From a virus, in IMG/VR virus record IMGVR_UViG_3300006736_000091, positions 1 through 24,222 of that record: 24,222 bases of DNA; one strand, 5' to 3'. How positions within the stretch are numbered: position 1 is the first letter of the stretch; each line of letters opens with the position of its first letter. The notes beneath the pieces are model-generated. The model was not told the origin of the DNA. It did not search any database and worked only from the letters and a program-made list of their open reading frames with translations. Position numbers and translations under genes: made by a program. Of this stretch, positions 88 to 24,222 are shown piece by piece.

Positions 88-351
88 ATGGATGAACGTG
101 TGGAATATTTCTTCTCACTCCTTGATTTGAATATGGTATCAGGCTTATCGCCGATGCATGCATTTGCAGATGCCCTTGAACATTATCATGATGTATTCTA
201 TGGAAATGATAATATTCCGGAAACCGGAGAAATAGAACCAGGACCAGAAAAACCAGGCAAAAGCTACCTGGGCGATGATTGGACATACGATCCGGAAACC
301 AGGATACATTCAAAAAGGATTTCGGCAGAAGTGGTGATCCGAACTCTATGA
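88..351 (+). CDS. small acidic hypothetical protein upstream of terminase
   Basis: This is an 87-residue protein of no family I recognise. The first ~45 residues look helical (HAFADALEHYHDVFY). The middle is rich in Pro, Glu and Gly, and there is no signal peptide or membrane segment. The ATG at 88 has an AAGGTGA-type ribosome-binding site six bases upstream. The stop overlaps the start of the terS fragment as ATGA (348-351). The complete terS copy is joined to its own upstream gene (PAPS reductase) by the same kind of overlap. That suggests this gene was once the normal upstream neighbour of a terS gene in one parent phage. Its role is unknown. Confidence 0.6.
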   Translation: MDERVEYFFSLLDLNMVSGLSPMHAFADALEHYHDVFYGNDNIPETGEIEPGPEKPGKSYLGDDWTYDPETRIHSKRISAEVVIRTL

Positions 352-404
352 GGGGCCGCAAGCCAAAACCAACAGCCTTGAAAGCACTGGCCGGGAACCC
401 GGGA
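348..404 (+). repeat. 57-bp direct repeat, copy 1 (5' end of terS)
   Basis: This stretch is identical base for base to 2126-2182. It begins exactly at the ATG and covers the first 19 codons of a terminase small subunit gene. The base before the ATG differs (T here, A in copy 2), and identity collapses immediately after the repeat. The two copies lie 1,778 bp apart and bracket the methyltransferase remnant, the ParB-like gene and the PAPS-reductase-like gene. Confidence 0.95.
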
Positions 405-473
405 TGCCGGCCACTGAATGACCGGGAACCGAAGATGGAAATAGCAGCACCACCGCGGCCGGATCCACCATGA
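348..473 (+). pseudogene. 5' fragment of terminase small subunit (truncated duplicate)
   Basis: This ORF encodes 41 residues. The first 19 are identical to the N-terminus of the complete small terminase starting at 2126. Of the next 20, ten are identical (shared R, LND, EP, E, PP, P positions), so it is a related but different terS allele and not a fresh copy. The frame ends at a TGA (471-473), where the DNA has already changed into the end of a methyltransferase gene in another frame. The DNA-binding core and the rest of the ~170-residue family are missing, so it cannot act as a terminase. A 41-residue peptide could still be made, because the ATG overlaps the stop of the gene at 88. Confidence 0.85.
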
Positions 474-592
474 TCGGATGCGAAAAAACAGGGAGGAAAT
501 GTCGAGGGATAGAACTCGATCCCCATTATTGCGATGTTGCAGTAAATCGGTGGGAACGATACACCGGATTAAAAGGAATAATCGAGAAATGA
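461..592 (+). pseudogene. C-terminal remnant of a DNA methyltransferase
   Basis: The frame through 461-592 reads GSTMIGCEKTGRKCRGIELD and continues PHYCDVAVNRWERYTG to a TGA at 590-592. This matches the conserved end of N4/N6-type DNA methyltransferases of phages and restriction systems. There, a Gly-Ser/Thr loop after the DPF motif is followed by the SAM-pocket segment with GIELDPxYCDV and the terminal RWExxTG. Everything upstream, including the catalytic (D/N/S)PP(Y/F) motif, is absent and replaced by terS sequence, so the enzyme is dead. The stop overlaps the ParB-like start as ATGA (589-592), so the intact ancestor probably sat directly upstream of that gene in one operon. Confidence 0.75.
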
Positions 593-1257
593 TTATTGAA
601 GAAATAAAGATAACTGAATTGAAACCAGCCGAATACAACCCGCGAAAGATAACAGCGGAAGATCTTGAAAAACTGGTGAAAGGTATCACAGAATTCGGCC
701 TGGTCCAATCGATAGTTATCAATAAAGACAATACTATCATCGGCGGCCATCAGAGAGTTCAGGCGGCAAAAATTGCCGGCCTGGAAAAGGTACCATGTTT
801 CAGGGTAGATTTGACCAAAGATAAAGAAAAAGCGCTGAATATCGCACTGAACAAGATCAGCGGCCAATGGGACCAGTTTATGCTTGACGGATTATTGATA
901 AACATCGAAGCCAGGGACTTGACAGGCTTCGATGATAACGAAATTCAAAAATCATTGGATCGGTGCGACAGTAACGAATTGAAAAACAAGATCCTGACCG
1001 AAGAAGAATACCAGCAATCAATAAACCTGGGAGAAAAGATAATCGGCCAGGTGAAAAAACGGGTAAACGAAATCACAAAAAACCATCCGGCCGAACTGAA
1101 CAAAGCATTGATGGTAATAATCAACAAAGGCGGCGGCAGCGAATTGATATTCCTGGTAGATCCGAACCTGAAAGATATCGTCAGTGAGCTGAAACGGTAT
1201 GCTGAATCTGGGATAACGTCACCGCTGGAAAGGATGTCAGAATCCATTTGGAAATAA
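589..1257 (+). CDS. ParB/sulfiredoxin-fold domain protein
   Basis: This is a 222-residue protein. Its N-terminal ~90 residues are a ParB/sulfiredoxin-fold domain: YNPRK at 16-20, then a helix (LEKLVKGITEFGLVQ), then the signature GGHQRVQAAK at 52-61, which corresponds to the nucleotide/phosphate-binding GGHxRxxAA motif. The C-terminal half (~110-222) is charged and helical, and I do not recognise it. The reading frame extends back to an ATG at 478, but that stretch is the methyltransferase remnant read in the wrong frame. The ATG at 589 has AAAAGGA upstream and overlaps the remnant stop, so I chose it. The 3' end overlaps the PAPS-reductase-like gene by 10 bp. Pairing with that family resembles IbrB/IbrA of E. 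coli and similar phage pairs. Nucleotide hydrolysis, DNA binding and regulation are all possible and unproven. Confidence 0.85.
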   Translation: MIIEEIKITELKPAEYNPRKITAEDLEKLVKGITEFGLVQSIVINKDNTIIGGHQRVQAAKIAGLEKVPCFRVDLTKDKEKALNIALNKISGQWDQFMLDGLLINIEARDLTGFDDNEIQKSLDRCDSNELKNKILTEEEYQQSINLGEKIIGQVKKRVNEITKNHPAELNKALMVIINKGGGSELIFLVDPNLKDIVSELKRYAESGITSPLERMSESIWK

Positions 1258-2129
1258 CGATCAATCTTATAAACGACACACTGGCCAATTATGAAAAACC
1301 GGTTATATCTTTTTCAGGCGGCACGGATTCGATGGTGTTGCTTGATATTATATACAAAAAAACAACACACCGGCCGGAAGTGGTATTTGTTGATTCTCAG
1401 ATGGAATACAGCAGCACTATTAAATTTGTAAAAAAGGTCTGCGGTGAATATAGCGCACCTTTACATATAACTAAAGCTAAACGGACACCTGTTGAACAAT
1501 GGGCGAAACAGGGCTGGCCGCTGTTGGGGAAACTGGCCGCCAGGAAATGGATGCAACGCCACCGGGGCCATGGGTACGGTATAAAACTGGATGTGTCGAG
1601 CTGTTGCCGAAACATGAAGATATCACCAGGCCGGAAGAAAACAAAGGCTATCGGCGGGGATCTGCAAATAACCGGCCAGCGCGGCGGGATGGATGATCAG
1701 CTCCGAGGACTGCGGGCCATCAAAGACGGATCAGTCAAATACTTGAAAACCGACAAGATGACGATATTCAACCCGCTGCTGGGCTGGACTGACCTAATGG
1801 TTCGAAGATACACAAAATCAAATAATCTTCCGGTACATCCCAGGAAGAAAATGGGCGCCATAACTATCGGGTGTCTATATTGCGGCGGCGGCGCACAATT
1901 CACAAACTCAGGATATAGAATACTGAGAATCAATGCGCCGGACCTGTTTCGAAAATATATAGTTGATTACAAAGCCGGGGAGGCTGTTTTATGTGTCAAG
2001 TATAATAGACCTTTACATTTAATTCAGGCTACGGTTGACAGCCTGGGCGGTCTGGCCAGGCTATTTGATACAAGACCGTGGATATTTGATTTCCTGGAAA
2101 TGCCACCGAGAAGAGGATATGATAAATGA
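1248..2129 (+). CDS. PAPS/APS reductase-like PP-loop protein (DndC/IbrA-like superfamily)
   Basis: This 293-residue protein belongs to the adenosine-nucleotide alpha-hydrolase (PP-loop) fold. The PP-loop SFSGGTDS is at residues 21-28. A Cys pair (C119, C120, followed by RNMK) and a later GCLYC (C209, C212) give the CC...CxxC pattern that binds a [4Fe-4S] cluster in APS reductases and DndC-type proteins. The cluster and the ATP site therefore both look intact. The likely start is a TTG at 1248 with GGAAAGGA upstream. No ATG lies in frame near the N-terminus, and the start overlaps the ParB-like gene. The stop overlaps terS as ATGA, so both cassette genes are translated just ahead of the terminase. 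The reaction is unknown: sulfur transfer to DNA or RNA, or a regulatory role as for IbrA, are options. A plain sulfate-assimilation role seems less likely in this setting. Confidence 0.88.
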   Translation: MEITINLINDTLANYEKPVISFSGGTDSMVLLDIIYKKTTHRPEVVFVDSQMEYSSTIKFVKKVCGEYSAPLHITKAKRTPVEQWAKQGWPLLGKLAARKWMQRHRGHGYGIKLDVSSCCRNMKISPGRKKTKAIGGDLQITGQRGGMDDQLRGLRAIKDGSVKYLKTDKMTIFNPLLGWTDLMVRRYTKSNNLPVHPRKKMGAITIGCLYCGGGAQFTNSGYRILRINAPDLFRKYIVDYKAGEAVLCVKYNRPLHLIQATVDSLGGLARLFDTRPWIFDFLEMPPRRGYDK

Positions 2130-2182
2130 GGGGCCGCAAGCCAAAACCAACAGCCTTGAAAGCACTGGCCGGGAACCCGGGA
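2126..2182 (+). repeat. 57-bp direct repeat, copy 2 (5' end of terS)
   Basis: This is the second perfect copy of 348-404, forming codons 1-19 of the intact small terminase gene. It is in direct orientation and could support homologous deletion of the intervening cassette. That loss would leave a single terS joined to the gene at 88. Confidence 0.95.
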
Positions 2183-2635
2183 CAAAGACGGCTAAACGAC
2201 CAGGAACCGGAAATAGAAGTAAAACAACCACCATGCCCAAATGACCTGAGCGAAGATGCACGGGCGATCTGGGATCAAACAGCGCCGATTCTAATTTCGA
2301 TGAAGGTATTGACGGAGGCCGATTGGGCGAACCTAGCCATCTTCTCAATTGCCATGGCCAGGCTGCTGAACGCCGATAAGATGAACAGAAAACTTGCTCG
2401 AGCGGTGAACATAACGCTTGCGGATGGAACATCTGAAGATGTTGTTTTCGAGGGAGTAATACGAACAAAGAACGGGAACCTCCAGGTATCACCATTTGAT
2501 TCGATGTTACGTGCTTATATGCAAATAGTGAACCGGGTGGCCGGCGATCTGGGTATGTCACCATCAATGCGGAGCAGACTTAGAACGGGATTCGTTAATG
2601 GCAAAGAAACCGAAAAAGACAAATTCTTCAAATAA
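2126..2635 (+). CDS. terS: terminase small subunit (P27-like family)
   Basis: This 169-residue protein is the DNA-recognition part of the packaging motor, and it hands concatemeric phage DNA to TerL. The N-terminus (RGRKPKPTALKALAGNPG) is the hallmark of P27-type small terminases. It is followed by a Pro-rich linker and helices around AIWDQTAPIL and LTEADWANLAIFSIAMARLL. The C-terminal segment (SMLRAYMQIVNRVAGDLGMSPSMRSRLR) matches the usual family ending. The length is normal. The ATG overlaps the PAPS-reductase-like stop and is preceded by AGAGGA. The 3' end overlaps terL by 38 bp. Its first 57 bp are duplicated upstream in a truncated copy. Confidence 0.93.
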   Translation: MRGRKPKPTALKALAGNPGQRRLNDQEPEIEVKQPPCPNDLSEDARAIWDQTAPILISMKVLTEADWANLAIFSIAMARLLNADKMNRKLARAVNITLADGTSEDVVFEGVIRTKNGNLQVSPFDSMLRAYMQIVNRVAGDLGMSPSMRSRLRTGFVNGKETEKDKFFK

Positions 2636-4193
2636 AGAATTCTATTATGATAAGCCGGCTGCACAAAAGGCAATAGCCTTTTTCCCAACGTTCCTAACAC
2701 ACATGAAAGGGAAACTGGCAAACAAACCATTTCACCTGTTGCCTTGGCAGGCCGATGAAATCATAAAACCGCTATTCGGCTGGAAACGCCGGGAAGATGA
2801 TTCACGGAAGTACCGCACCTGTTATGTGGAGATCCCCAGAAAAAACGGGAAATCTACACTGGCCGCCGGTGTTGCTCTTTATATGTTGTTCTGCGATAAG
2901 GAACCTGGTGCAGAAATATATTCATGCGCCGCCAGCCGGGACCAGGCATCGATCATCTTCAAAATAGCGAAATGGATGGTTGACCATTCGCCGGAGTTAA
3001 GATCAAGGTGCGAAGTATTCCAGAAAGCCATCATTATTCCTGAAACCGGCAGCGTATACAAAGCTATCAGCTCGGACGCTTTCAGCAAACACGGAGAAAA
3101 TGCGCACGGAATCATATTCGACGAGCTCCACGTTCAGCCAAATCGTGAGCTTTGGGACGTCATGACAACATCCGTCGGATCCAGGGTGCAACCAATAACG
3201 CTGGCCCTGACTACCGCCGGATATGATAAGACATCATTATGCTGGGAACAACACGAACACGCCAGGCAGATCATCGAAGGCCGGATCGCAGATCCGGAAT
3301 TCCTGCCGGTAATCTATGGTATGGCGCCGGAAGAAAAATGGAGATCAAAACGGACCTGGCGCCGGGTGAATCCTTCACTTGGAAAAACAGTACCGATGCG
3401 GTTTCTGGAATCGGAATACAGGAAAGCGAAACAGATGCCGGCGTATCAGAACACCTTCAGGCGCCTGTACCTGAACGAATGGACATCACAGGAAAGCCGG
3501 TGGCTCGATATGGAAAAATGGGATGCTTGCGGCCGGCGGTTCCTGCTGAAAAAACTACTCGGCCGAATTTGCTATGGCGGTCTGGACATAGCCAGCACTA
3601 TTGATATAGGGGCTTTTGTACTGGTCTTCCCCATGGATGATGGATGCTTTAACGTAATAGCCAAATTCTGGATACCAGGTGAAGGTGTTGTAGCAAAAGA
3701 AAAACGGGATCGGGTACCGTACAGAAAATGGATAAAACAAGGATATCTGACCGCGACACCGGGCGATGCGATAGATTATGAAGCTATCAGCGAAGAAATT
3801 CATGATCTGGAAGAAATATACAATATCAAAGAAATCGGGTTTGACCGGTGGGGCGCGATCCAGTTGGCCCAGGAGCTACAGGCCGATGGGTTCACCATGG
3901 TACCGATAACACAGAAGTTTTCAGGTATGTCGGCACCGATGAAAGAAGTAGGCTCGAAGATTATTTCCGGCCATCTGAGACACCGGAAAAACCCAATACT
4001 CGATTGGATGGCAGATAATTTGCAAGCGAAACAGAATTCTGACGGAGATCTGCAGCCGGACAAGAAGAAATCTAGGATGAAAATAGATGGTATGGTGGCC
4101 ATGATCATGGCCATGGATCGCGCCATAAGAAATATCGGCACCGATGAGGAAGAAGAATCAACTTATGAAACGGGCGGTGTATTTTTCGTATGA
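2598..4193 (+). CDS. terL: terminase large subunit (ATPase/nuclease packaging motor)
   Basis: This 531-residue protein is the ATP-driven DNA translocase and headful/cos nuclease that docks on the portal. Visible motifs in order are LLPWQ near 47-51, Walker A RKNGKST at 81-87, Walker B IIFDE at 172-176, and the coupling motif TTAGYD at 205-210. The C-terminal RNase H-like nuclease has candidate metal ligands D330 (GGLDIA), D416 (IGFDRW) and D497 (KIDGMVA). The length fits the HK97/YmfN-type terminases. The start at 2598 keeps the typical N-terminal helix before LLPWQ. The stop overlaps the next small gene as ATGA. Confidence 0.96.
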   Translation: MAKKPKKTNSSNKEFYYDKPAAQKAIAFFPTFLTHMKGKLANKPFHLLPWQADEIIKPLFGWKRREDDSRKYRTCYVEIPRKNGKSTLAAGVALYMLFCDKEPGAEIYSCAASRDQASIIFKIAKWMVDHSPELRSRCEVFQKAIIIPETGSVYKAISSDAFSKHGENAHGIIFDELHVQPNRELWDVMTTSVGSRVQPITLALTTAGYDKTSLCWEQHEHARQIIEGRIADPEFLPVIYGMAPEEKWRSKRTWRRVNPSLGKTVPMRFLESEYRKAKQMPAYQNTFRRLYLNEWTSQESRWLDMEKWDACGRRFLLKKLLGRICYGGLDIASTIDIGAFVLVFPMDDGCFNVIAKFWIPGEGVVAKEKRDRVPYRKWIKQGYLTATPGDAIDYEAISEEIHDLEEIYNIKEIGFDRWGAIQLAQELQADGFTMVPITQKFSGMSAPMKEVGSKIISGHLRHRKNPILDWMADNLQAKQNSDGDLQPDKKKSRMKIDGMVAMIMAMDRAIRNIGTDEEEESTYETGGVFFV

Positions 4194-4342
4194 ATAAAAA
4201 AACTTTTGATTTCTGGGATCAACTTATTCTGACCGGCGTCGCGGTAGTAGGATATGGTCTATACTTGATCTTCATCCCTGCCTGTATCATCTGGGCCGGG
4301 CTGTTTTTAATTATCACAGGGTACATTTTTGGATCTCAATAG
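4190..4342 (+). CDS. 50-residue two-helix membrane protein
   Basis: The gene starts at an ATG overlapping the terL stop (ATGA) and ends at TAG 4340-4342. The protein starts MNKKTFDFWD. It then has two hydrophobic stretches, roughly residues 11-29 and 31-47, joined by a Pro at residue 30, which predicts a helical hairpin in the inner membrane. Tight coupling to terL suggests co-expression with packaging. I do not recognise the family. Small membrane proteins sit between terL and portal in other phages without known function. Confidence 0.65.
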   Translation: MNKKTFDFWDQLILTGVAVVGYGLYLIFIPACIIWAGLFLIITGYIFGSQ

Positions 4343-4356
4343 TACATTTTTTGTAC
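4342..4356 (+). promoter_or_regulatory. GTACA-T5-TGTAC inverted repeat, possible operator
   Basis: Perfect 5-bp arms GTACA (4342-4346) and TGTAC (4352-4356) flank five T residues. A further GTACATTTTT copy lies at 4321-4330 inside the small membrane gene, so the motif is repeated 21 bp apart. It lies just upstream of the possible -35 element at 4364. An operator is possible, and AT-rich chance is not excluded. Confidence 0.3.
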
Positions 4357-4363
4357 AAACCTG

Positions 4364-4392
4364 TTGACGTAACTCCCCCGAGGGTGTATTCT
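4364..4392 (+). promoter_or_regulatory. possible sigma70-type promoter before the portal gene
   Basis: TTGACG (4364-4369, 5/6 to consensus) is separated by 17 bp from TATTCT (4387-4392, 4/6). Transcription would start near 4399 and produce a leader for the head genes. The spacer contains the left arm of the hairpin at 4372-4429, so a regulator binding the repeat would block the promoter. Confidence 0.35.
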
Positions 4393-4429
4393 TTTATAGA
4401 ATAGTATAAAAAAGGTTCCTCGGGGGAGT
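4372..4429 (+). promoter_or_regulatory. nested inverted repeat overlapping the portal ribosome-binding site
   Basis: The arms ACTCCCCCGAGG (4372-4383) and CCTCGGGGGAGT (4418-4429) are perfectly complementary over 12 bp. Inside the loop is a second palindrome, TATTCT (4387-4392) and AGAATA (4398-4403). The right arm contains GGGGGAG, the only strong Shine-Dalgarno sequence ahead of the portal coding frame. If transcribed whole, the stem would bury it. There is no T-run after the stem, so a classical terminator is unlikely. A translational switch or a DNA operator are the better readings. Confidence 0.55.
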
Positions 4430-4435
4430 AACCAT

Positions 4436-6061
4436 ATCGGCATCTACGCTACAGCTCTGAAACGATCAACATTAGCCAATCCGAGTGAATGGCTAGTCAA
4501 TATGATCTCCGGTGGCAGTAAAACGTCCACCGGTCTTTCTGTAACATCTTCCAACGCTCTACAAGCAACCGCAGTTTGGGCATGCGTCAGGTTCATATCT
4601 GAAACGATAGCAACACTCCCCCTGTTCACCTATCGGCGGCTATCCCCCCGAGGTAAAACCAAAGCCAGAGAACACCGGTTATTTTCTCTTCTTCATGATG
4701 CTCCGAACCCGGAAATGGATGCAGTGTGCTTTAAAGGTACACTGCAAGGCCATTTATGTCTACGCGGGAACGCTTATGCACATAAAGTGTTTAACCGCGG
4801 CGGTGAATTGATAGAACTCTGGCCGCTGCGTCCGGATCGGATGGAAATCGAGCGGGTAAACGGCAGGATAGTATATTTCTATACTGTTCCCGGTACCGGT
4901 GTCAGGCATGCTCTATCACAACGGTTCATCTGGCATATAAAGGGATGGGGCTATAATGGGCTGCTTGGATATTCACCTATTTCCTTTTGCCGGGAATCCA
5001 TCGGCCTGGCCCTGGCAACGGAAAAATATGGGTCTTCATTTTTCGGTAATGGCGCCCGGCCAGGCGGATACCTGAAATATCCACAAAAACTAAGCCCAAC
5101 AGCAAAAGAAAATATCAAAGATTCGTTTGAAACTGAGCATAAGGGGCTTGATGTCGCTATGCGGATGGCGGTACTGGAAGAAGGCATGGAATGGGTCCAG
5201 GTAGGTATTTCTCCTGACGATTCCCAATTTCTGCAAACCCGTGGATTCCAGACAGAAGAAATTTCACGAATATTTAACGTAAAACCGCATAAAATCAATG
5301 ATCTATCGAAAGCTACTTTCAGTAACATTGAACAACAAAACATTGAAAGCACTATCGATACTATCCGGCCCTGGGCTGTCCGGTGGGAACTGTCAGCAAA
5401 CCAGCAACTACTTGGTAACGATCCGGAACTGTTCACAGAATTTCTGATAGATGCCCTGATGCGCGGTGATCAGGAAAGCCGGTACAAGGCATACTCCGTC
5501 GGCCGCCAGTGGGGCTGGCTATCAGCCGATGATGTCAGGGAACTGGAGAACCAGAACCCGCTACCTGATGATCAAGGTAATATATATATGGTTCCTTTGA
5601 ACATGGTTCCGGCTACTCAGATCGAAATCGTCATTGATCAGCGATCAGAAATAAGAAAACGTATGTTTGATGTATTTCGGCCCATATTCCGGCAAGCATA
5701 TGAACGAATACTTGCCCGGGAACGTGCCGATATACTCCGGGCAGCCGAAAAGAAGCAAGGTGAAGAATTAACTACGTATGTTGATAAATTCTATACAAAT
5801 CACCATTTATACATGCGAAAACAGCTAAATGCACCCATTGACACGTTCATTAGGGAATATGAGCGATCATTCAGCACAAAACGTAAAGAAATCATGTTTA
5901 TTGAACCAATAAACAGCTATGTAGCTAGTATTGCTTGTGATTTATCGGGTATTGATGATCTGGAAAGCTGTTTTGATACTAGGCAGATAAAAGAAAACAT
6001 TGAAATCAGGGTGAACGAATGGATGGAACAACTCTGGAGGGAGTTGGAAACAGATGCCTGA
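4436..6061 (+). CDS. portal protein (HK97-like), start codon non-standard or uncertain
   Basis: This is the dodecameric ring at the capsid vertex through which DNA passes. The body is a clear phage portal: ALQATAVWACVRFISETIATLPL, then the clip and stem region with RPWAVRWE. An extra ~130-residue helical C-terminal part is rich in charged residues. The first ATG is at 4502 (519 aa). The frame is coding-like further upstream, with LANPSEWLV matching the conserved NPxEWL segment that precedes the Gly-rich loop in this family. That stretch (4400-4501) has no ATG, GTG or TTG. I place the start at ATC 4436, seven bases after GGGGGAG, giving 541 residues. The ATG at 4502 has no convincing ribosome-binding site. 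The 3' end overlaps the protease gene by 8 bp. Confidence 0.93.
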   Translation: MGIYATALKRSTLANPSEWLVNMISGGSKTSTGLSVTSSNALQATAVWACVRFISETIATLPLFTYRRLSPRGKTKAREHRLFSLLHDAPNPEMDAVCFKGTLQGHLCLRGNAYAHKVFNRGGELIELWPLRPDRMEIERVNGRIVYFYTVPGTGVRHALSQRFIWHIKGWGYNGLLGYSPISFCRESIGLALATEKYGSSFFGNGARPGGYLKYPQKLSPTAKENIKDSFETEHKGLDVAMRMAVLEEGMEWVQVGISPDDSQFLQTRGFQTEEISRIFNVKPHKINDLSKATFSNIEQQNIESTIDTIRPWAVRWELSANQQLLGNDPELFTEFLIDALMRGDQESRYKAYSVGRQWGWLSADDVRELENQNPLPDDQGNIYMVPLNMVPATQIEIVIDQRSEIRKRMFDVFRPIFRQAYERILARERADILRAAEKKQGEELTTYVDKFYTNHHLYMRKQLNAPIDTFIREYERSFSTKRKEIMFIEPINSYVASIACDLSGIDDLESCFDTRQIKENIEIRVNEWMEQLWRELETDA

Positions 6062-6688: not shown

Positions 6689-7909
6689 ATGAAGGATGCC
6701 ATAGCACTTAGGCAGGAAAGGCAGAAGGTAATCAACGAAGCAAAGGCGCTGGTTGCCCGGGCAGAGGAAGAAAATCGGGATTTGAGCGATCAGGAAAAAG
6801 AATCGTACGATCGGATGGATGCCGATATTGATAAGTTTCTGGTAAGAATCAACCGGATCGAGCGGATGGAGTCTCTGGAACGCGATCTGAAAGAGCCCAT
6901 CGGTGATTCCCTGAAACCCGATACAGGCGATTTGCCGACAGGTGACGAAGCCCGGACCACCGCAGAACTACGCGGTTATGAAAATTTCCTTCAGAATGGG
7001 AAATCCGCCATGAATCAGGAATTCAGGGCGCTGCAGGCCGACGCTGATATTTATGGTGGTTTCGTGGCCACTCCCCCCGAAGTATCAATGCAGATAATCA
7101 AAGCCGTAGACAACGCACTGTTCTTCCGGCAGTTGGCTACTACTTTCCAGGTACCGAAAGCGGAATCCCTGGGCGCGCCGGCTCTTGATAACGATCCGGC
7201 AGATAGCACCTGGACCGCAGAGATAGGATCAGCCAGCGAAGATTCAACCATGAGTTTCGGGAAACGCGAACTGAAACCGCATCCACTGCGGAAACTCCTG
7301 AAGGTATCCGAAACGCTGATCAGGAAAGGCGCCATCGATGTGGTGTCTTTCGTTACCAGCCGCCTGGCCTATAAAACGGCTGTTCCCCAAGAAAACGCTT
7401 TCATGAACGGTACTGGATCCGGCCAGCCGCTGGGTATCTTCGCGGCATCCAGCTCCGGTATCAGCACCGGCCGGGACGTTTCAACCGGCAACACCACCAC
7501 CAGTATCGCGTTTGATGGTCTGATCGAAGCGAAGTACTCTATCAAAACGCAGTACTGGATGGATCTTTCCTGGATATTCCACCGGGATGCCGGTAAACAG
7601 ATCAGGAAACTGAAAGACGGCGAAGGCCGGTACATCTGGGAATCAAGCGTCAAAGCCAACGAACCTGACACCATCCTCGGCCGGCCGGTTTATCTCAGCG
7701 AATACGCGCCCAATACATTTACTACGGGTCTGTATGTCGGCTGTCTCGGTGCCTTCTCCAATTACTGGATAGCCGATGCTCTGAACATCCAGATCAAGCG
7801 CCTGGACGAACTCTACGCCCGCACAAACCAGATCGGGTTCATCGTAAGTGCCGAAACCGATGGTTTACCCGTCCTTGAAGAAGCATTCGCCAGGATCACG
7901 CTGGCTTAA
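6689..7909 (+). CDS. major capsid protein (HK97 fold)
   Basis: This 406-residue protein forms the icosahedral shell. Residues ~1-95 form a charged coiled-coil delta domain that acts as an internal scaffold and is normally removed by the neighbouring protease. The capsid fold begins around the GGFVATPPEVSMQII segment and continues through FFRQLATTFQVPKAES and the E-loop region (STWTAEIGSASEDS). The ending VLEEAFARITLA is typical. An in-frame ATG at 6674 overlaps the protease stop. The ATG at 6689 has GGAGG eight bases upstream and is preferred. Confidence 0.95.
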   Translation: MKDAIALRQERQKVINEAKALVARAEEENRDLSDQEKESYDRMDADIDKFLVRINRIERMESLERDLKEPIGDSLKPDTGDLPTGDEARTTAELRGYENFLQNGKSAMNQEFRALQADADIYGGFVATPPEVSMQIIKAVDNALFFRQLATTFQVPKAESLGAPALDNDPADSTWTAEIGSASEDSTMSFGKRELKPHPLRKLLKVSETLIRKGAIDVVSFVTSRLAYKTAVPQENAFMNGTGSGQPLGIFAASSSGISTGRDVSTGNTTTSIAFDGLIEAKYSIKTQYWMDLSWIFHRDAGKQIRKLKDGEGRYIWESSVKANEPDTILGRPVYLSEYAPNTFTTGLYVGCLGAFSNYWIADALNIQIKRLDELYARTNQIGFIVSAETDGLPVLEEAFARITLA

Positions 7910-13132: not shown

Positions 13133-13719
13133 TCAACCAGGTTTACAAAATCAGTGTAGCACCGTCGGTGGAGCCGATGTCACTAGCTGATGCTAAAACG
13201 CATTTGCGTGTTGACGCATCGGATGATGATGATTATATCACTGCACTGATCAAAGCAGTCAGGCTTCACGCTGAACGTATCACTGGCAGGGGGTTTATCA
13301 CGCAGACATGGGAGATGCGGCGCGATACCTTCCCGGCAAGCAATTCTATAAAACTGCGGTATGCTCCGTTACAGTCAATCACCAGCCTGATCTATAAAGA
13401 TTCAGATGGTACTGATAACACCTGGGCATCCAGTAACTACGTGGTTGACACTTATCGGGAACCTGGGCTAATCATCCTCGAGGATGGAGTAAGTTGGCCC
13501 TCAGATACACTTTATGAAACGGGCGGTGTCAGGGTATTGTATGTTCTCGGGTATGGTGACGCGGCCAGCGACCTGGATGAAGATCTGATCCATGTGATGA
13601 AACTTCATCTTACGGTATTGTTTGAATGCCGGGCGCCGATATCGGAAATAAAACTGCAGCCGGTCCCGCTGGGATATCATGCGCTGCTGGAACAATTCAG
13701 GATACACGAATCATGGTAG
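13129..13719 (+). CDS. head-tail connector protein (HK97 gp6-like)
   Basis: This 196-residue protein attaches under the portal to complete the head. The opening VEPMSLADAKTHLRVDASDDDDYITALIKAVRLHAERITGR is the characteristic gp6-like helical start. It continues with a strand-rich middle (TFPASNSIKLRYAPLQSITSL) and a C-terminal helix (LIHVMKLHLTVLFE). The start is a GTG at 13129 overlapping the previous stop (GTGA). The 3' end overlaps the next gene by 7 bp. Confidence 0.9.
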   Translation: MINQVYKISVAPSVEPMSLADAKTHLRVDASDDDDYITALIKAVRLHAERITGRGFITQTWEMRRDTFPASNSIKLRYAPLQSITSLIYKDSDGTDNTWASSNYVVDTYREPGLIILEDGVSWPSDTLYETGGVRVLYVLGYGDAASDLDEDLIHVMKLHLTVLFECRAPISEIKLQPVPLGYHALLEQFRIHESW

Positions 13720-23600: not shown

Positions 23601-24222
23601 TTCATTCTCGGCATTCTCCGACCTGAAAGCCAATAGCGTCACCCGGGAACTGACTGACGCCGAAGTGGTGGCCAGCGGCGCGACAGCGGCCATCTATATC
23701 GAAGTGAAAGCGGTTGACATCTATTCCCAGGAAAGCGCGACGGCAACGGCTGCAAACCTGAACGCTGAAGATTCCACAACCATTGTGACTGAAAACGTCC
23801 TGGCTAAAGACGCCAGCGGGCTGTTATTGAAAGATAAAGATGGTGTGCTCGGTGTTCATGTTGACGATGGTGGAAATGTTGGGATCGGTGGTGTTGCTTC
23901 TGGTTCTTATGGGTTAAACTTATACGATGGCTTGGCACTACCTATTGATAAAAACATATTTTTAGGCGGAAAAGCATTTGTTCGATTGGATGATCCGGCC
24001 AACGATATATTTTTTGGTACAGGTACAGGTGGTGATTATCATTTTTATGGGAATGGTATGGCGGGCTATGGCAATATATATGTAGGAGACATGAACGTCA
24101 CCGGTGATTTAGATGTTACTGGTGATTTAGATGTTACTGGTGATCTACAGGTTGGCGGAGTTATAAATGGAAATTTAGAAATATTAGGGGCGTGGGATGC
24201 TGGTGTTCCTTGGGCGGTAACA
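20656..24222 (+). CDS. large tail-tip/host-specificity protein (gpJ-like), 3' end outside the window
   Basis: The frame is open from ATG 20656 to the window edge (1,189 residues so far). Residues ~8-45 are a Gly/Ala-rich hydrophobic segment like the gpI-type glycine zipper, so the I and J roles may be fused. A J-type core follows. It is split by an insert at ~150-300 that looks like a carbohydrate-binding jelly roll (TDWTGTSLSQATRAKQGEHS to WIDYVTAQG). After ~640 come fibronectin-III-like modules (VIDLTWNAP, LRVEWAPVSDGDLAFYEIRD, VNFSWARNTEKDLDGYTYRT). A separate module is inserted at ~795-885 (SIDVPDGDYTPTALATALEA). From ~1035 it turns into fibre sequence with GDLDVT repeats. It likely forms the central fibre that touches the host receptor. 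Confidence 0.85.
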   Translation, partial: MGEDLKKVGGYLITGALVFVGAGGAAAGSKAWLLGGAAAGYSAYSGYQAEKKMDALRASTRSPQQRWGQRFNQASEEVVKPIWLGKGKSWPNMTWNRVSPDGQTMDAIYEIGEGEVNSISDVRVDGKTLTSLPGCTFTAYLGTSSQTLDSRVTGDTVINAAEDTTDWTGTSLSQATRAKQGEHSVRDTIATPVATTAYQTRYSSVPDLGAQTTAKFWFYCNRANGAFTTPRFEIEDSGGNISYWDLTFSANTWTQMTITLDTPDGNNGSDANLSDISFIGTNLIAADTTTFSVWIDYVTAQGPAVAVTGGMRHIAYLAVTLTLSDQISQEPTVTCIVQGIECKYWNGAAWVTDTGWTHSQNPANQITEMYLRDKEIGGVGLAETKLDGASFKECADYFDGVVDGQARWTYNRPLDERRPAVDWIADILAVCKGVIIRGADGKLYMRCEKTAASDQTFILSDTITEQNNINPGSWGMQSNPLSGEYNSIRIGYISPSHGYTIQYVEDNDDSDIATNGMRQQTYDKPGINSYKQAARDAWFTREEMKSAGRLITWSTGILATAREPYDRVNMTHLEPGWEDYPIRILNISRTGEHMSFLGKPYISDLHGDNPGQSEPTSWSSTLPDPLDEPPNINDLTLTEDSKLLKGSSTYIPVIDLTWNAPNGYFLPLKYHIWVKPSGGTYEIVNTVTNLFYTIDLRATTGTTEYFVKIQPSNYQDIAPPLTGCPEESIVVAGKDTAPEDIVFDSGTSAFDRELRVEWAPVSDGDLAFYEIRDEDQNWGLDTYNISASNDIMVLTSDLGGPQSIDVPDGDYTPTALATALEAAMNANATLTGTGTITFVVTWDTSTRKYTLDAGGGHTIDYTNAGSDAGATFGFTADTVAAQTITSDTKVDSHRVFQGKATEYVVTDPPSDTTAYTFYGKAQDTSDNWSDNSDSITLTNTVPANVAAISTVALYRAVNFSWARNTEKDLDGYTYRTKVTAGGSFSAFSDLKANSVTRELTDAEVVASGATAAIYIEVKAVDIYSQESATATAANLNAEDSTTIVTENVLAKDASGLLLKDKDGVLGVHVDDGGNVGIGGVASGSYGLNLYDGLALPIDKNIFLGGKAFVRLDDPANDIFFGTGTGGDYHFYGNGMAGYGNIYVGDMNVTGDLDVTGDLDVTGDLQVGGVINGNLEILGAWDAGVPWAVT
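24085..24156 (+). repeat. 18-bp tandem repeat encoding GDLDVT
   Basis: Two perfect units GGTGATTTAGATGTTACT (24103-24120 and 24121-24138) are flanked by degraded units at 24085-24102 and 24139-24156. In the protein they read GDMNVT, GDLDVT, GDLDVT, GDLQVG. Hexapeptides of this kind stack as rungs of a beta-helical fibre. The two identical units suggest recent expansion or slippage. Confidence 0.9.

What the first reader, a model, noticed from the sequence alone, without database searches (positions are those of the whole stretch)
348..2182. ParB/PAPS-reductase cassette bracketed by perfect 57-bp copies of the terS 5' end
Seen: 348-404 equals 2126-2182 exactly, both starting at the ATG. The upstream copy then diverges to about half identity at the protein level and is truncated. 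Each copy overlaps its own upstream gene as ATGA. Inference: two terS alleles from related phages recombined at their conserved start, placing an accessory cassette into the packaging operon while keeping one working terS. The conserved terS start may act as a repeated landing spot for accessory genes. The direct repeats could also allow precise loss of the cassette.
Basis: partly seen in the sequence, partly recalled or inferred. Interest (0 to 1): 0.7.

Follow-up and report, generated by a model that had tools for sequence, protein, structure and literature searches.

The report
Phage gene module flanked by packaging-gene fragments
A recent recombination left a two-gene phage module (probably DNA-modifying) between two identical copies of the start of a DNA-packaging gene, together with the cut-off tail of a methyltransferase gene that shows where the pieces were joined.

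Summary
In detail: 348-404 equals 2126-2182 exactly (57 bp), both from the ATG of a terS, and conservation does not explain it. Only one other IMG/VR contig has the peptide RKPKPTALKALAGNPG, and its head DNA matches just 40/57. After 57 bp the two copies are different alleles (37/63 nt identical).

It missed a scar: the terS fragment runs directly into the last ~40 codons of a DNA methyltransferase (470-592), then ParB, PAPS reductase and terS. Relative L018 carries the intact order [ParB-methyltransferase]-ParB-PAPSred-terS-terL, so PAPSred-terS adjacency also occurs elsewhere, and the terS'|methyltransferase joint is the new one.

ParB-PAPSred is a recurring phage module, found beside terminase genes in most of about 20 contigs, before or after terS. 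In L047 it is bracketed by a 70-bp, 93% repeat of the other (3') end of a probable terS: a mirror-image case.

Best reading: a [methyltransferase tail-ParB-PAPSred-terS' head] segment was closed on itself, and homologous exchange at the terS head put it before a resident terS. The joint rests on a single contig. ParB plus an Fe-S PP-loop enzyme suggests DNA modification (inferred).

The parts
88..351 (+). 87-aa orphan ORF; its stop overlaps the first terS head (ATGA)
   Evidence: no Pfam/PHROG match, no IMG/VR relative
348..404 (+). left copy of the exact 57-bp terS head repeat
348..473 (+). terS fragment of 41 codons (allele 1), lacks the Terminase_4 domain
   Evidence: phrog_83 E 1.9e-8
446..592 (+). 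3' end of a DNA methyltransferase gene (ORF 470-592); the joint with terS lies within about 446-470
   Evidence: phrog_498 E 8.9e-13; alignments to relatives
589..1257 (+). ParB-like gene with a conserved C-terminal domain shared with module relatives
   Evidence: PF02195 E 5.6e-12; alignments
1248..2129 (+). PAPS-reductase-like PP-loop gene with CC...CxxC
   Evidence: PF01507 E 7e-24; alignment of 8; fold search
2126..2182 (+). right copy of the exact 57-bp repeat, start of the intact terS
2126..2635 (+). complete terS (allele 2, P27-like)
   Evidence: PF05119 E 1.6e-13, phrog_83 E 2.2e-35
2598..4193 (+). terL
   Evidence: PF20441, PF03354, phrog_9

Best explanation
The segment is a recent recombination product between two related phages. 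The donor carried [ParB-]methyltransferase - ParB - PAPSred - terS', the order still intact in L018. A piece running from the 3' end of its methyltransferase gene through ParB and PAPSred into codon ~41 of terS' was closed on itself (as a circle or a tandem-repeat joint) by an illegitimate join of terS' to the methyltransferase tail around 446-470, where both reading frames run through the same ~20 bases. Homologous exchange at the terS head then put this piece in front of the resident terS. This gives gene88 - terS head - terS'|methyltransferase tail - ParB - PAPSred - terS head - resident terS body - terL, with the 57 bp duplicated. SHOWN: the repeat, the two alleles, the methyltransferase tail, the intact order in L018, the mirror-image case in L047. 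INFERRED: the circle or tandem intermediate, the order of events, recency. The stops of gene 88, the terS fragment, the methyltransferase tail and PAPSred all sit in ATGA overlaps with the next start, so the two remnants may be kept as a translated leader that carries ribosomes to ParB (inferred). The module's own job is most likely a phage DNA modification made before packaging: a ParB-fold NTPase plus an Fe-S PP-loop enzyme that activates its substrate with ATP (inferred, about 0.45).
For: Exact 57-bp repeat with diverged tails. At amino-acid-identical head positions relatives share 29 of 105 codons with the window, while terS1 and terS2 share all 18 (about 1e-10 if independent). A degenerate scan for the head peptide found one other contig in IMG/VR, with 40/57 nt identity. 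Methyltransferase tail joined to the terS fragment. L018 has the order [ParB-MTase]-ParB-PAPSred-terS-terL; L014 has PAPSred-terS in ATGA overlap. L042, with methyltransferase and terS homologous to L018's, has the module on the other side of terS. L047 has ParB-PAPSred-small bracketed by a 70-nt, 93% repeat of the 3' end of the gene before it, a probable terS. Module chemistry: invariant SGG-DS and CC/CxxC in 8 homologues, Cys aligned with APS reductase 2goy, BrxP best PADLOC hit. Phage Rad52-like recombinases work on short, diverged homology (PMC3945230).
Against: One contig only; the same phage in another assembly (L028) starts inside terL and does not cover the joint. The left parent cannot be traced because gene 88 has no relatives and the contig starts 347 bp before the repeat. 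A plain illegitimate crossover followed by gene conversion of the 57 bp gives the same product. Exact identity of the two heads still requires that donor and resident heads matched or were homogenised. PMC3945230 argues that illegitimate recombination is rare in phage evolution. No relative shows an intermediate such as a tandem copy. There is no direct evidence for the module's biochemical activity.
Confidence: 0.6

Rival explanations
1. Two-parent illegitimate crossover: a phage with gene88-terS' was joined at terS' codon ~38 to the methyltransferase of a phage with MTase-ParB-PAPSred-terS. Later gene conversion between the two terS heads made 57 bp identical.
For: Needs one joint and one conversion; the left boundary of identity is exactly where homology ends, as for a conversion tract; right-hand order as in L018.
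Against: Needs a separate conversion event to explain the exact 57 bp; does not account for a similar terS-end bracket in L047.
Confidence: 0.25
2. Site-specific or transposition-like insertion: the module is a mobile element that targets terS edges, and the repeats are attachment sites or long target duplications.
For: Module found before or after terS in different phages, and terS-end repeats on both sides in the window and in L047.
Against: No integrase, transposase or HNH gene between the repeats; no terminal inverted repeats at its ends; the repeats differ in length, in end of terS and in terS family; most relatives have none; methyltransferase remnant between the repeats is not an element end.
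Confidence: 0.06
3. Assembly or amplification chimera.
For: Single contig, exact repeat, no second assembly covers it.
Against: A 57-bp graph error would give gene88-terS or PAPSred-terS', not a terS'|methyltransferase joint, and the joint has no long repeat an assembler could follow. PAPSred-terS adjacency occurs in L018 and L014.
Confidence: 0.06
4. The 57 bp is kept identical by selection as a functional site, for example a packaging (pac) or translation-initiation element.
For: In several phages pac lies in terS (general knowledge); both copies sit at a coupled start.
Against: The head is not conserved at DNA level in relatives (24-41 of 57); RNA folds are no stronger than shuffled sequence (z +1.0 and +1.4).
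Confidence: 0.03

Closest known systems
Mosaic recombination of tailed phages by relaxed homologous or illegitimate exchange (De Paepe et al. 2014, PMC3945230)
   Same: Joint of unrelated gene pieces, exchange at short homology, order of late genes kept, redundant gene fragments left behind.
   Different: Here the product keeps an exact 57-bp direct repeat and a double scar (terS head joined to methyltransferase tail), and a mirror-image arrangement occurs in another phage.
Phage ParB-methyltransferase fusion genes upstream of terS (PHROG 498; e.g. Streptococcus and Lachnospiraceae phages)
   Same: Same neighbourhood and homologous methyltransferase tail and ParB domain.
   Different: In the window the methyltransferase is reduced to its tail, and a separate ParB with its own C-terminal domain is paired with a PAPSred-like enzyme.
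BrxP (type 4 BREX), DndC/SspD phosphorothioation enzymes
   Same: PAPS-reductase-type PP-loop domain; BrxP is the best PADLOC match (E 8e-16); DndB is a ParB-superfamily protein (PMC12839542).
   Different: Only the PP-loop domain matches (about 200 of 779 residues of BrxP); partner genes of those systems were not seen next to the module.
IbrA/IbrB pairs reported in phages and prophages (PMC4490671, PMC4541368)
   Same: A ParB-like protein paired with a PAPS-reductase-like protein in phage genomes.
   Different: Here the pair sits in the terminase operon; no DUF3440 match in the window protein; no direct sequence comparison with IbrA was made.
Assimilatory APS/PAPS reductase (CysH)
   Same: Fold by Foldseek (7rge, 6vpu, 2goy); Fe-S cysteines CC/CxxC aligned with 2goy.
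   Different: No conserved cysteine after 212, scores far below the NCBIfam cut-offs (70.7 vs 154 bits), phage context.

Membership tests
Terminase small subunit, P27-like (phrog_83) | full-length match including the Terminase_4 domain | tested here: met
   gene 2126-2635: PF05119 E 1.6e-13, phrog_83 E 2.2e-35; the fragment 348-473 has only the head
DNA methyltransferase of the ParB-MTase type (phrog_498) | 470-592 is the C-terminal end of such a gene | tested here: met
   E 9e-13 to positions 393-429; aligns with the methyltransferase tails of more than ten relatives
DNA methyltransferase of the ParB-MTase type (phrog_498) | complete catalytic gene | tested here: not met
   only about 45 C-terminal codons remain in the window
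Assimilatory APS reductase (CysH) | PP-loop and CC...CxxC Fe-S ligands | tested here: met
   invariant S23, G24, G25, D27, S28, C119, C120, C209, C212 in 8 sequences; aligned to 2goy 137-231
Assimilatory APS reductase (CysH) | C-terminal redox cysteine; score above family cut-off | tested here: not met
   no conserved Cys after 212; NF002537 70.7 bits vs cut-off 154
BREX type 4 BrxP | full BrxP domain architecture | tested here: not met
   only positions 117-318 of 779 match
BREX type 4 / Dnd phosphorothioation systems | partner genes (PglZ, DndD, DndE, desulfurase) | not tested
   no dedicated scan of all window proteins; none recognised among the neighbours examined
IbrA/IbrB | DUF3440 region in the PAPSred protein (own knowledge) | tested here: not met
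   Pfam scan at E up to 1 gave no DUF3440
IbrA/IbrB | ParB-like partner gene adjacent | tested here: met
   589-1257, PF02195 E 5.6e-12
Integrative element or transposon | own recombinase and terminal repeats of its kind | tested here: not met
   no such gene in 405-2125; no inverted repeat at its ends
DNA-modification system | modified DNA made by the ParB-PAPSred pair | not testable with these tools
   needs mass spectrometry of DNA

The most novel reading that the evidence does not exclude
ParB-PAPSred (often with a third ~95-residue gene of no known family) is an undescribed phage DNA-modification module that spreads between terminase regions of unrelated phages by recombination through terS ends, leaving 57-70 bp terS-derived direct repeats that allow its precise loss.
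Probability: 0.27. Interest if true: 0.72.

Novelty: new variant of a known kind. Interest (0 to 1): 0.5.

Why it matters
It is a recombination joint caught with both scars readable, so it shows how accessory genes can enter an essential packaging operon without breaking it. The gene orders in about 20 relatives make the question of how this module moves around terS testable, and they point to a ParB plus Fe-S PP-loop enzyme pair whose chemistry on phage DNA is unknown.

Tried and rejected
Conservation of the terS head as the cause of identity: rejected by the head-peptide scan and codon comparison. Simple tandem duplication within one phage as sole cause: rejected because the tails are only 59% identical. 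A 57-bp assembly-graph error: cannot make the terS'|methyltransferase joint. RNA structure at the repeat: nothing above shuffles.

Searches that led nowhere: the terS protein and gene 88 found no relatives in IMG/VR by direct search. The PAPSred protein has only distant matches (below 28% identity) in sequenced phages and plasmids. The ParB model was too weak to use (pLDDT 60.6), and the PAPSred model is only moderate (69.7).

No paper describing this ParB-PAPSred-terminase arrangement was found in the searches made; that library holds open-licence papers only, so this is weak evidence of novelty. That IbrA carries DUF3440 and that APS reductase has a C-terminal redox cysteine are from general knowledge. 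An early worry that the terS fragment is part of a longer conserved gene was checked: in every relative the head belongs to a full terS, and none has a terS-methyltransferase fusion.

Full report
What is there. The window is a whole 24,222-bp linear IMG/VR contig. From 88 it reads: an 87-aa orphan ORF, a terS fragment (348-473), a 40-codon ORF (470-592), ParB (589-1257), a PAPS-reductase-like gene (1248-2129), a complete terS (2126-2635) and terL (2598-4193), then portal and other head and tail genes. The exact 57-bp repeat 348-404 / 2126-2182 is confirmed and cannot be extended. The longest chance repeat in 60 simulated sequences was 16 nt.

The missed scar. ORF 470-592 (MIGCEKTGRKCRGIELDPHYCDVAVNRWERYTG...) is the C-terminal end of a DNA methyltransferase: phrog_498 positions 393-429, E 9e-13. 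Read back to 446 in the same frame it gives AAGSTMIGCEKTG, matching the motif that in relatives reads SGSTLIACE. The terS frame reads through the same bases as PPRPDPP and stops at 471-473. So the terS fragment is joined out of frame to a methyltransferase tail, with the exact point ambiguous over about 20 bases. The starts at 348, 470, 589 and 2126 all lie in ATGA overlaps.

Why the repeat is not conservation. Relatives of this terS have 24-41 of 57 identical head bases. The peptide RKPKPTALKALAGNPG occurs on only one other IMG/VR contig (L037), and there the DNA matches 40/57. At head positions with the same residue, eight relatives share 29 of 105 codons with the window, while the two window copies share all 18. 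After base 57 the two copies are ordinary different alleles, 37/63 nt identical. A recent exchange or conversion of the head is therefore required. Both remnants are still open and match their families, which also points to a recent event (inference).

Which joint is new. L018 (IMGVR_UViG_3300028883_000991) has [ParB-methyltransferase 4029-5339] - ParB (58% to the window's) - PAPSred (68%) - terS (phrog_83, 6896-7366) - an HNH-like ORF - terL. Methyltransferase-tail/ParB and PAPSred/terS are thus natural neighbours, and L014 also has PAPSred directly before a terS. The unnatural joint is terS'|methyltransferase.

The module in relatives. L018: MTase-ParB-PAPSred-terS-terL. L042: MTase-terS-ParB-PAPSred-small-terL, with MTase and terS homologous to L018's. 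L013, L038, L039, L043: ParB-PAPSred-(small)-[ParB-MTase]-terS-terL; L040 the same without a recognised terS. L019, L020: terS-ParB-PAPSred-small-terL. L048: [ParB-MTase]-PAPSred-terL; L049 and L051 also have the ParB-MTase directly before PAPSred. TerL and TerS belong to several families. The module has only distant matches in sequenced phages and plasmids.

A mirror-image case. In L047, ParB-PAPSred-small (5300 to about 7166) is bracketed by a 70-nt, 93% repeat (5213-5282 / 7165-7234). The left copy is the 3' end of the preceding gene; the right copy is a 23-codon remnant straight after the small gene. That preceding gene is a probable terS, by position and by a weak phrog_57 match (E 0.0027). 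In L013 a 113-nt, 80% copy of the terS HTH lies in an endonuclease VII-like gene upstream of the module. Of 20 loci tested, the window and L047 have clear terS-end brackets; most have none.

Mechanism. I favour closure of a donor segment [methyltransferase tail-ParB-PAPSred-terS' head] by an illegitimate joint, as a circle or tandem repeat, then homologous exchange at the terS head with a resident gene88-terS-terL phage. It accounts in one scheme for the permuted order (terS head before methyltransferase tail), the exact repeat and the different tails. A two-parent illegitimate crossover with later gene conversion is the main rival and gives the same product. Phage Rad52-like recombinases tolerate short and diverged homology, and the same paper argues that illegitimate events are rare (PMC3945230).

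Function of the module. The PAPSred-like protein keeps the PP-loop and four cysteines (119, 120, 209, 212) in all eight homologues aligned. These align with the Fe-S region of APS reductase 2goy, and Foldseek ranks APS/PAPS reductases first (model confidence moderate). It lacks a conserved cysteine beyond 212 and scores below all CysH cut-offs. BrxP is its best PADLOC match. ParB-superfamily proteins act in the Dnd and Dpd DNA-modification systems (PMC12839542). A DNA modification made at packaging is the likeliest job (about 0.45, inferred).

Limits. The joint rests on one contig; the same phage in another assembly (L028) starts inside terL. The left parent is unknown. No cassette-free relative was found, so precise excision remains untested.

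Noticed in passing
L012 1637-1945, L013 3510-3794, L015 6879-7175, L019 3472-3744, L020 6873-7154, L042 6248-6553, L047 6896-7166: A conserved third gene of about 95 residues follows PAPSred, in most loci with an ATGA-type overlap; the L012 and L020 copies match no PHROG family, and the L012 copy no Pfam, NCBIfam or PADLOC family. It is absent from the window.
   Followed up: partly
window 4163-4180 and 13512-13529: Exact 18-nt repeat between the 3' end of terL and a downstream connector-like gene; the longest chance repeat in 60 simulations was 16 nt.
   Followed up: partly
window 24103-24126 and 24121-24144: 24-nt exact overlapping repeat (18-bp period) in the last gene near the contig end.
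   Followed up: no
L018 7381-7875: HNH-like ORF lies between terS and terL; identified from sequence appearance only.
   Followed up: no
L047 7250-7620: GC-rich low-complexity, tandem-looking stretch directly after the terS 3' remnant.
   Followed up: no
L013 589-1308 and 5380-6066: An endonuclease VII/HNH-like gene contains a copy of the HTH of the local terS (113 nt, 80% identical), as if a nuclease gene had captured part of terS.
   Followed up: partly
L048 4011-6268, L049 4400-6819, L051 2618-4833: A variant in which the ParB-methyltransferase fusion sits directly before a longer PAPSred, without a separate ParB.
   Followed up: partly
L028: Contig IMGVR_UViG_3300025082_000165 is 100% identical to the window phage over terL (from residue 302) and the portal, but starts after the region of interest.
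   Followed up: yes
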